Below, one piece after another: positions 48,140 through 49,810 of a stretch of DNA of 64,000 nucleotides. The notes under the pieces are model-generated. The model searched no databases. It was not told where the DNA came from and was given only the letters and a program-made list of their open reading frames with translations. A program made the translations under genes and the position numbers. Origin of the DNA: Parabacteroides sp. PM6-13 (GTDB lineage: Bacteria; Bacteroidota; Bacteroidia; Bacteroidales; Tannerellaceae); contig NZ_JARXWF010000015.1 in NCBI RefSeq assembly GCF_029892605.1, positions 1 to 64,000 on the forward strand. Reading direction: 5' to 3'. How positions within the stretch are numbered: position 1 is the first letter of the stretch; every line of letters starts with the position of its first letter.

Positions 48140-49180
48140 TTACTTCATAGCGTAGTTTGTACCCCTTCCGCTTCCATGTTTTTCTATTAATCCTTTTTCA
48201 ACCAGCTCTGAAAGAATCCGCTTTACCGTTGGATTTGGTATTGAAAGTCTTTCGGCAATATCCCCAGATTTACTTCCTGGATGATTTGATATAATTGTTA
48301 TGATTGCCTTTTCTCTTGGCGAAAGTTGTGACTCTGTTCCACTTTGTTCCAATTTTATCATCAATTGTGTTTGAATATTTTTTAATGCATCAAGGAAGAA
48401 GAATACCCAATCCGTAATATCTTCATTCGGTCTTTGAGTCTGACAACTCCGTAAGACTCTGTAATACTCTGTCTTGCGACTTTCTATTTCGTGTTCAAAA
48501 CTAACATACTGAATCCAACTATAACTGTTTTTCATCAACAGAAGGGTAGATAACAGACGGCTCAATCGCCCATTGCCATCCTGAAAGGGGTGGATACTCA
48601 GAAACTCATACGTGAAAACAGCACTTTTAATCAAAGCGTGAACCTCCTTTTCTGTATTATACCAAACAATTAATTTTCTGATTGCATCTTCAGTTGCATA
48701 TCCCGCTTCAGAGGTTTGAAAAATGATTTGCTTTTCGCCATTAGGAAATGTAGCTTCAACAGCATTGTTATGAATCTTGTAATTTCCTTTATGCCAATCA
48801 TCCTTTTTGCTGTATCGCATCAGGATGTTATGCAGGTTTTTTAAATCATTTTCTGAAATGGTAATCTCAGCATACGATTCCGAAATTGTATCAAGCGTTT
48901 CAAAATACCCTACTACTTCTTGGGAATCACGATCTTCCAGTTTTGTTATGTCTATTTCTTGTAGTAAAACATTGATTTCTTCATCGCTCATTTTAGAGCC
49001 TTCAATTCTTGTCGAGGCACCAACGCTTCTAACAGTCGCAATACTTTTTAGTTGTTTGAGGCTTTGACCCTCCTTCCTCTCAATTGCACTCCATTGTGAG
49101 TCAAAACGGTCGATTTGGCTGATTAGATTAATTAGTTTCCAATCAATATTGAGTTTGAAGTCATATACATTATTTTCCAT
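48140..49180 (-). CDS. Class II Fic-domain AMP-transferase with winged-helix tail
   Basis: 346 residues. The Fic catalytic motif HPFQDGNGR is intact at residues 197-205. The inhibitory motif STRIEG (residues 56-61, [S/T]xxxE[G/N]) lies N-terminal to it, which marks class II Fic proteins held inactive by their own helix. The C-terminal 60 residues (SPREKAIITIISNHPGSKSG, NPTVKRILSELVEKGLI) form a winged-helix DNA-binding domain. Fic enzymes usually transfer AMP to a hydroxyl of a target protein. Repeated GATACG sites upstream suggest that the protein controls its own gene. It has its own terminator and no antitoxin gene beside it. Confidence 0.9.
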   Translation of the reverse strand: MENNVYDFKLNIDWKLINLISQIDRFDSQWSAIERKEGQSLKQLKSIATVRSVGASTRIEGSKMSDEEINVLLQEIDITKLEDRDSQEVVGYFETLDTISESYAEITISENDLKNLHNILMRYSKKDDWHKGNYKIHNNAVEATFPNGEKQIIFQTSEAGYATEDAIRKLIVWYNTEKEVHALIKSAVFTYEFLSIHPFQDGNGRLSRLLSTLLLMKNSYSWIQYVSFEHEIESRKTEYYRVLRSCQTQRPNEDITDWVFFFLDALKNIQTQLMIKLEQSGTESQLSPREKAIITIISNHPGSKSGDIAERLSIPNPTVKRILSELVEKGLIEKHGSGRGTNYAMK

Positions 49181-49193
49181 ATTCTCTTTTTAT

Positions 49194-49298
49194 GATACGT
49201 TTCGATACGCAAATATACAAATATAATACGAATAAACACATGTTTCGTGATACGATTCGATACGTATTTATTCGATTGTGATACGATAATCCGATACT
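49194..49298. promoter_or_regulatory. GATACG repeat operator region of the Fic gene
   Basis: GATACGTTTCGATACG (49194-49209) and GATACGATTCGATACG (49249-49264) differ at one base; a weaker third copy lies at 49280-49298. Between the first two, two TATATTTG -7-like boxes occur on the minus strand (49210-49217 and 49218-49225). The layout looks like an autoregulated promoter with paired operators. Confidence 0.6.
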
Positions 49299-49394: not shown

Positions 49395-49654
49395 TACTTC
49401 ACTTGTTAGCCACCTCCGAAAAAAGTAGCCCTCACCCGTTTAGCACGCTGGTATAATGTTATCGAAGAGTCAGGCTTTGAGCATTTGGAACAGTGATGCG
49501 CTCTGTGCAAGCACACTACAAAGCCATATTAAACTTCTTTGATAGAAGAGCAACCAATGCCTCGGCTGAATCCTTTAATGCCAAGATCAAAGCTTTTAGG
49601 TCTGTGCTTAGGGGAGTAAACCATATCCCATATTTTTTATTTAGACTCAAATAA
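49395..49654 (+). mobile_element. Decayed 3' end of an ISL3/ISAon1-like transposase
   Basis: Two overlapping frames encode the C-terminal end of a DDE transposase: ALTRLARWYNVIEESGFEH, then after a frameshift near 49484 KAILNFFDRRATNASAESFN, KIKAFRSVLRGV and NHIPYFLFRLK followed by a stop. The (D)RRATNASAESFNAKIK stretch is characteristic of ISL3/ISAon1-type elements of Bacteroidetes. The rest of the element and its ends are gone. A run of nine G (49657-49665) follows. Confidence 0.75.
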
Positions 49655-49733: not shown

Positions 49734-49737
49734 ATGG

Positions 49738-49810
49738 TGATTTGCCTGGGGTTCGAACCCAGGACCCCATCCTTAAAAGGGATGTGCTCTACCTGCTGAG
49801 CTAGCAAATC
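49738..49810 (-). tRNA. tRNA-Lys (anticodon TTT)
   Basis: 73-base cloverleaf on the minus strand. The acceptor is GATTTGC/GCAAATC, anticodon stem CATCC/GGATG with loop CTTTTAA (anticodon TTT), T arm GGGTTCGAACCCC. CCA is not encoded. The AT-rich accessory stretch lies on its 3' side. Confidence 0.94.

What the first reader, a model, noticed from the sequence alone, without database searches (positions are those of the whole stretch)
48140..49298. Self-contained Fic regulator with paired GATACG operators
The gene combines an intact class II Fic enzyme, its inhibitory motif and a winged helix. Its promoter carries two near-perfect copies of GATACGnTTCGATACG and a third weaker one, bracketing two -7-like boxes. 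This suggests an AMP-transferase that reads its own promoter, perhaps with modification changing DNA binding.
Basis: partly seen in the sequence, partly recalled or inferred. Interest (0 to 1): 0.6.

Follow-up and report, generated by a model that had tools for sequence, protein, structure and literature searches.

The report
Self-controlling Fic enzyme with striped promoter
A bacterial enzyme that tags proteins with AMP carries its own DNA-reading domain, and a whole family of such genes keeps an evenly spaced row of short DNA words in front of it, most likely so that the enzyme can bind there and hold down its own production.

Summary
The Fic gene (48140-49180, minus strand) is intact: HPFQDGNGRLSR active site, N-terminal class II inhibitory motif STRIEG, C-terminal winged helix. 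The repeats are real: exact CGTATCNNNNCGTATC occurs twice in the 4.04-Mb genome, both times in this promoter. The 16-mer is only part of the element. The unit is a 6-bp half-site, arranged as two tetrads spaced 11-10-10 bp; one tetrad covers both -7-like boxes. Across 89 non-redundant homologues (own phylum, plus plasmids of Pseudomonadota and Cyanobacteriota and two phages), upstream 7-mer self-matches peak at lags 10 and 11 (596 and 382 against 45 and 47 in shuffles); 130 upstreams of neighbouring genes have no such peak. 32 upstreams of other Fic types show no excess. Half-sites drift by clade (CGTATC, TGGATA, TGGGTG) and partly track the recognition helix. Best reading: negative autoregulation by head-to-tail binding of the Fic protein to helically phased direct repeats. 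Autorepression by a Fic-HTH protein is known (CccR, inverted repeats). The listings of my searches showed no direct-repeat operator of Fic genes. Binding was not measured; whether AMPylation changes it is untested.

The parts
48140..49180 (-). Class II Fic protein with C-terminal winged helix, 346 aa (stop codon included)
   Evidence: ORF; Pfam; motifs; homologues
48998..49015 (-). Codons of the class II inhibitory motif STRIEG (residues 56-61)
   Evidence: residue position; a [ST]xxxE[GN] match within residues 26-110 in 87 of 87 complete homologues (a short pattern, some could match by chance)
48557..48592 (-). Codons of the Fic active-site motif HPFQDGNGRLSR (residues 197-208)
   Evidence: HPFx[DE]GNGRxxR in 76 of 87 complete homologues
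48143..48328 (-). C-terminal winged-helix domain (residues 285-346), recognition helix about 316-328
   Evidence: Pfam HTH_24/MarR_2; predicted helix 316-328
49194..49230 (-). Tetrad 2: half-sites 49225-49230 (CGTATT), 49214-49219 (TGTATA), 49204-49209 (CGTATC), 49194-49199 (CGTATC), spaced 11-10-10
49249..49285 (-). Tetrad 1: half-sites 49280-49285 (CGTATC), 49269-49274 (CGAATA), 49259-49264 (CGTATC), 49249-49254 (CGTATC), spaced 11-10-10; starts 55 bp upstream of tetrad 2
49293..49298 (-). Extra weak half-site AGTATC, 13 bp upstream of tetrad 1 (out of phase)
49210..49217 (-). -7-like box TATATTTG, inside tetrad 2 (box consensus TAnnTTTG is recalled knowledge of Bacteroidetes promoters)
   Evidence: TAnnTTTG within 75 bases of the start on the coding strand in 33 of 45 close homologues, 0 of 45 on the other strand
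49218..49225 (-). Second -7-like box TATATTTG, inside tetrad 2

Best explanation
The gene is a single-gene, self-limiting class II Fic enzyme. Its winged helix binds 6-bp half-sites that repeat head-to-tail every 10-11 bp, so that all lie on one face of the DNA. Four half-sites (11-10-10) make one block. One block covers the -7 boxes and the likely start of transcription; a second starts 55 bp upstream of it. As the protein accumulates it fills the blocks cooperatively, shuts out RNA polymerase and keeps its own level low. Shown here: intact gene, arrays, phasing, conservation, link to this Fic clade, position over the promoter boxes, partial co-variation with the recognition helix. Inferred: that the Fic protein itself is the binder, that binding is head-to-tail and cooperative, and that it represses rather than activates.
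For: Exact pair only in this promoter in the own genome. 89 representatives: lag 10 z=53, lag 11 z=31, further peaks at 20-22 and 31; 130 control upstreams of neighbouring genes have no peak at 10 or 11. 70 of 89 loci reach p<=0.02 one by one. Spacing 11-10-10 in 31 of 44 close homologues under a strict rule, against at most 11 for any of the 63 other spacings tried; under a loose rule tetrads start 44-47 bp apart in 12 cases, 52-58 in 10, 65 in 1, roughly whole-turn steps. 40-50% homologues: triads at 11-11 in 17 of 26 against at most 4 for the other 15 spacings. 32 upstreams of other Fic types: no excess. Exact pair beside the Fic gene in 17 of 30 carrier genomes (25 of their 28 sites), 11 sites in 30 non-carriers (counted by hand). 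-7-like box in or just below the array. Residue 321 Arg goes with C in at least half of the sites at half-site position 6 in 24 of 24 loci, Lys in 5 of 30; half-site distance follows recognition-helix distance after Fic-domain distance is taken out, r=0.38. Precedent: CccR, a class II Fic with C-terminal HTH, represses its own promoter (PMC9755527, passages).
Against: No binding or expression data. Few independent switches support the residue 321 link: 5 changes on the tree, only 2 usable pairs on well-supported branches, sign test not significant. Half-site distance also follows Fic-domain distance given the winged helix (r=0.25), and the permutations do not remove shared descent. The one relative whose operator I found described (CccR) binds inverted, not direct, repeats. 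19 of 89 loci miss p<=0.02; many of these look like degenerate arrays by eye, but L043 (broken frame), L044, L064 and the two phage homologues show none that I can see. 13 of 44 close homologues lack a strict tetrad and 7 a loose one; the loose rule had no spacing control. The second half-site of tetrad 2 in the window is degenerate (TGTATA).
Confidence: 0.8

Rival explanations
1. The array is the operator of another regulator (for example a host repressor of mobile or defence genes), not of the Fic protein.
For: Binding was not measured; promoter arrays can be read by other factors. A similar 10-bp array stands in front of a gene with three HTH_17 stretches in the same genome (L092).
Against: The exact pair occurs nowhere else in the genome. 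Arrays accompany homologues in the own phylum and on plasmids of Pseudomonadota and Cyanobacteriota (7 of 8 such representatives at p<=0.02), and no neighbour gene is shared by 3 or more of 45 close loci within the fetched flanks, so a shared outside regulator is unlikely. The half-site drifts with the Fic clade.
Confidence: 0.1
2. The protein activates rather than represses its promoter, or does both, because in many homologues the tetrads lie just upstream of a -7-like box near -12.
For: Two placements exist: box inside the tetrad (window, -45 and -37) or at -12 or -13, below it, in 17 of the 33 close homologues that have a box.
Against: In the window the array covers the boxes and the likely start; the known relative CccR represses.
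Confidence: 0.12
3. The arrays are simple tandem-duplication debris or recombination scars without function.
For: L011 shows a perfect CGGCTCAAAT array running into masked bases.
Against: The 11-10-10 pattern is not a constant period, half-sites are kept while spacers vary, and phasing recurs across clades with different words.
Confidence: 0.03

Closest known systems
CccR of Yersinia pseudotuberculosis (PMC9755527; passages read)
   Same: Class II Fic with N-terminal inhibitory motif and C-terminal HTH domain; binds and represses its own promoter; 10-bp element AGATAATCAT, which like many half-sites here holds GATA/TATC letters
   Different: Operator is two inverted 10-bp repeats 26 bp apart bound by a back-to-back dimer; here two blocks of four direct half-sites. 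CccR is reported as a T6SS effector; nothing of the sort was tested here
CbFic2 of Coxiella burnetii (PMC10628234; title, abstract start and passages)
   Same: Fic enzyme with HTH whose (de)AMPylation is induced by DNA binding
   Different: Studied with random DNA; passages name no operator; reported target is histone H3. The paper notes that DNA binding by SoFic had not been shown
SoFic / EcSofic (PMC12249575 passages; NCBIfam NF046030; PADLOC SoFic)
   Same: Class II single-protein Fic with a C-terminal domain; best PADLOC profile is SoFic, 160.5 bits
   Different: Far below the NCBIfam equivalog cut-off (64 of 550 bits). EcSofic has a reported small antitoxin AS1; no conserved partner here. 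Whether SoFic genes carry such arrays was not tested by name
BldC (PMC5859096; passages read); OmpR-type response regulators (detail recalled)
   Same: Winged-helix proteins that bind direct repeats; BldC head-to-tail as cooperative multimers, four on one site
   Different: Unrelated proteins without an enzyme domain; likeness is in binding mode only and is inferred

Membership tests
Class II Fic proteins | HPFx(D/E)GNGRxxR active-site motif | tested here: met
   HPFQDGNGRLSR from residue 197
Class II Fic proteins | N-terminal inhibitory motif (S/T)xxxE(G/N) | tested here: met
   STRIEG at residue 56
Class II Fic proteins | AMP transfer released by loss of the inhibitory Glu | not testable with these tools
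   needs a biochemical assay
SoFic equivalogs (NCBIfam NF046030) | score above curated cut-off 550 bits | tested here: not met
   64 bits
CccR-type autoregulated Fic-HTH proteins | C-terminal HTH on a class II Fic | tested here: met
CccR-type autoregulated Fic-HTH proteins | inverted-repeat operator with long spacer in own promoter | tested here: not met
   direct half-sites, 10-11 bp apart
CccR-type autoregulated Fic-HTH proteins | protein binds and represses its own promoter | not testable with these tools
   comparative support only
CccR-type autoregulated Fic-HTH proteins | secretion by a type VI system | not tested
   no search made
Two-gene toxin-antitoxin module (Fic/Doc type) | conserved partner gene | tested here: not met
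   678 flanking ORFs of 40 aa or more from 45 close loci: at blastp E<=1e-5 one cluster reached 3 or more loci, and it is the array itself read as an ORF; flanks are about 1.5 kb and shorter at contig ends

The most novel reading that the evidence does not exclude
The arrays are assembly scaffolds, not mere operators: four Fic subunits line up on each tetrad, Fic-domain contacts bridge the two tetrads about 45, 55 or 65 bp apart (about whole turns), and the DNA-bound state sets the activity of the enzyme, so that the promoter both counts the enzyme and keeps it in an inhibited form until the complex is broken up, for instance when AMPylation or a phage changes it.
Probability: 0.15. Interest if true: 0.75.

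Novelty: new variant of a known kind. Interest (0 to 1): 0.52.

Why it matters
Class II Fic enzymes often carry a winged helix whose job is mostly unproven. The conserved, phased arrays name its probable DNA target for a large clade, give a ready binding assay, and show a family in which half-site word and recognition helix appear to drift together while the spacing stays. That makes the question whether Fic activity and DNA binding are coupled directly testable.

Tried and rejected
Viral contigs: no relatives by protein or alignment. Phage records: three matches at E<=1e-15, two of them full length (31-32% identity), fetched, without a detectable array. Structure prediction from four sequences was poor (mean pLDDT 42.6; ten-residue means of 73-84 only over residues 291-330), so no fold search was run. 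Toxin-antitoxin reading: no conserved partner. Inverted-repeat reading of the operator: overlapping palindromes exist but the conserved element is direct. Off-target exact pairs: 14, six opened, none by a Fic gene. PDB entry 8uqu, the best sequence match: no paper of the library holds its code. Three weak loci (L012-L014) were not used. Rows dropped: 4 of 114 loci with uncertain start or too little upstream sequence before the lag count, then 21 of 110 as 90%-identity duplicates; L011 (masked bases) before the tetrad count; in the control set of 36 other-Fic loci one had no readable motif (L003), one too short an upstream (L167), and two belong to the clade (L151, L168), leaving 32, with the first Met of the open frame taken as start. 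For the co-variation test 7 loci were set aside by name (L043, L044, L064, L141, L142 without array, L011 masked, L039 broken), 2 incomplete ones left out, and 16 of the remaining 80 left out for fewer than three phased core matches, so that test sees only loci with arrays.

Full report
Gene. The ORF at 48140-49180 on the minus strand codes for 346 residues with a Fic domain (PF02661, 58.4 bits) and a C-terminal winged helix matched by several HTH families over their cut-offs. The active-site motif HPFQDGNGRLSR starts at residue 197 and the class II inhibitory motif STRIEG at 56. Best solved relatives by sequence are Fic proteins 8uqu and 4rgl, with SoFic entries and 8cil further down. It is not a SoFic equivalog by NCBIfam (64 bits, cut-off 550), though SoFic is its best PADLOC profile (160.5 bits). 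The own genome gives nine Fic-domain matches.

Observation. GATACGnTTCGATACG is present exactly at 49194-49209 and 49249-49264. In the whole genome of 4,036,338 bases the pair CGTATCNNNNCGTATC has two exact matches, both here; with one mismatch there are 26 more (backward control pattern: 16), so only the exact form is distinctive. The two TATATTTG boxes lie between them.

What the element is. Relative to the start codon, on the coding strand, half-sites begin at -19, -29, -39 (degenerate), -50 and again at -74, -84, -94, -105: two tetrads spaced 11-10-10.

Homologues. Searches gave matches at E<=1e-60 in 6 of 123 genomes of the family, 32 of 393 of the order, 38 of 395 of the class and 25 of 395 of the phylum; the sets overlap. 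The spread is patchy. One scan of named genomes gave full-length relatives in a Parabacteroides, a Saprospiraceae and a Bacteroidetes record, and three weak or partial ones. tblastn of plasmids at E<=1e-30 gave 60 records, all under 60% identity, of which I fetched nine.

Periodicity. From 114 loci, 4 with uncertain start were dropped, and 89 representatives under 90% identity were kept of 110. In the 130 bases upstream plus 12 downstream of the start, 7-mers with at most one mismatch recur at lag 10 in 596 cases (shuffles 45, sd 10; z 53) and at lag 11 in 382 (47, sd 11; z 31). Further peaks stand at 20, 21, 22 and 31 (z 25, 11, 17, 25), with lesser ones at 5, 30, 32, 34 and 35 (z 5-7). 130 upstreams of other genes in the same loci, scaled, give 27 and 38 at lags 10 and 11. 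One by one, 33 of 45 loci at 50% identity or more, 23 of 26 at 40-50% and 14 of 18 below 40% reach p<=0.02. Several of the rest show degenerate arrays by eye; L043 (broken), L044, L064 and the two phage loci show none that I could see.

Architecture. In the close group the spacing 11-10-10 is found in 31 of 44 loci under a strict rule, the next best of 64 spacings in 11; under a looser rule, without a spacing control, 37 of 44 have at least one tetrad and tetrads start 44-47 (12 cases), 52-58 (10) or 65 (1) bp apart. In the 40-50% group triads of TGGATA-like words spaced 11-11 occur in 17 of 26, the other 15 spacings in at most 4; there the last unit often overlaps the start codon. In the most distant group words such as TGGGTG, TGGATA, CGGGTA or TGGCTA repeat close to the start, also on plasmids of Pseudomonadota and Cyanobacteriota: 7 of 8 such representatives reach p<=0.02, Thiothrix does not. 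A TAnnTTTG box lies within 75 bases of the start on the coding strand in 33 of 45 close homologues, on the other strand in none.

Specificity. 32 upstreams of Fic genes outside the clade show 21 and 17 self-matches at lags 10 and 11, no more than at many other lags. In 30 carrier genomes, chosen from close homologues, exact pairs number 28, 25 of them beside the Fic gene in 17 genomes; 30 genomes without a listed match at E<=1e-60 hold 11 (counted by hand). Five of those 11, and one of the three off-target sites of carriers, were opened: five of the six lie inside ORFs of 330 or more codons, one lies 79 bp upstream of a gene that looks like a ketoacyl synthase (my reading of the sequence). In my first look only one strand was read; searches mended that.

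Who binds. Over 64 loci with a readable array, half-site distance correlates with recognition-helix distance after Fic-domain distance is removed (r 0.38, permutation p 0.001), but also with Fic-domain distance given the winged helix (r 0.25, p 0.001); permutation does not remove shared descent. Arg321 goes with C in at least half of the sites at position 6 in 24 of 24 loci, Lys321 in 5 of 30; the other 10 loci have other residues. A neat sister pair is L113 (Arg, CGTATC) and L112 (Lys, CGTATA). On the Fic-domain tree there are 5 changes of the residue and too few independent pairs for significance. This is suggestive only.

Known work. CccR is a class II Fic with C-terminal HTH that represses its own gene through two inverted 10-bp repeats 26 bp apart (PMC9755527, passages). 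CbFic2 has DNA-binding-induced (de)AMPylation, tested with random DNA (PMC10628234, title and passages). Sofic is a class II single-protein antiphage system, in E. coli with a small antitoxin (PMC12249575, passages). BldC shows that a winged-helix protein can bind direct repeats head-to-tail as multimers (PMC5859096, passages). Searches for Fic with operator, own-promoter, direct-repeat, tandem-repeat or half-site terms showed no title or abstract start on direct-repeat operators of Fic genes; one search listed 20 of 49 papers and 15 of 16, and the library holds open-licence papers only.

Verdict. A self-regulated Fic-HTH enzyme is a known kind; the phased direct-repeat operator kept across a large clade is a new variant as far as I can see. 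The enzymatic target, the trigger and any coupling of AMPylation to DNA binding remain unknown.

Noticed in passing
L002 (own genome C2), within about 80 bp upstream of the ORF at 1075-1962: Another Fic gene of the same genome, with an N-terminal stretch that looks like an HTH (not tested), has TTGCCGTTATCGGCAA and TTGCCGATAACAGCAA around a TATATTTG box: it may be self-regulated too, by a palindrome.
   Followed up: partly
L092 4502-4537 (own genome C14:25001-25036): A 10-bp array of CGTATC/CGTATT words stands directly upstream of a gene with three HTH_17 stretches, followed by a phage-type integrase and another Fic-domain gene, next to a gene that looks like mnmE (recalled likeness): a second, unrelated phased array.
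   Followed up: partly
window 49496-49654: Remnant of an ISL3-type transposase (Pfam DDE_Tnp_ISL3, 38.5 bits) between the Fic promoter and tRNA-Lys (49735-49810).
   Followed up: partly
L011, about 2292-2356: Perfect CGGCTCAAAT repeats running into masked bases, upstream of a 62% homologue: such arrays may grow by slippage.
   Followed up: no
L045, L046, L050, L056, L063, around the start codon: In the 40-50% group the last half-site includes the start codon (ATGGATA or ATGGAT), so binding might also touch the translation start region.
   Followed up: no
L039, L043: Homologues with in-frame stops; the array is seen in L039 and not in L043.
   Followed up: no
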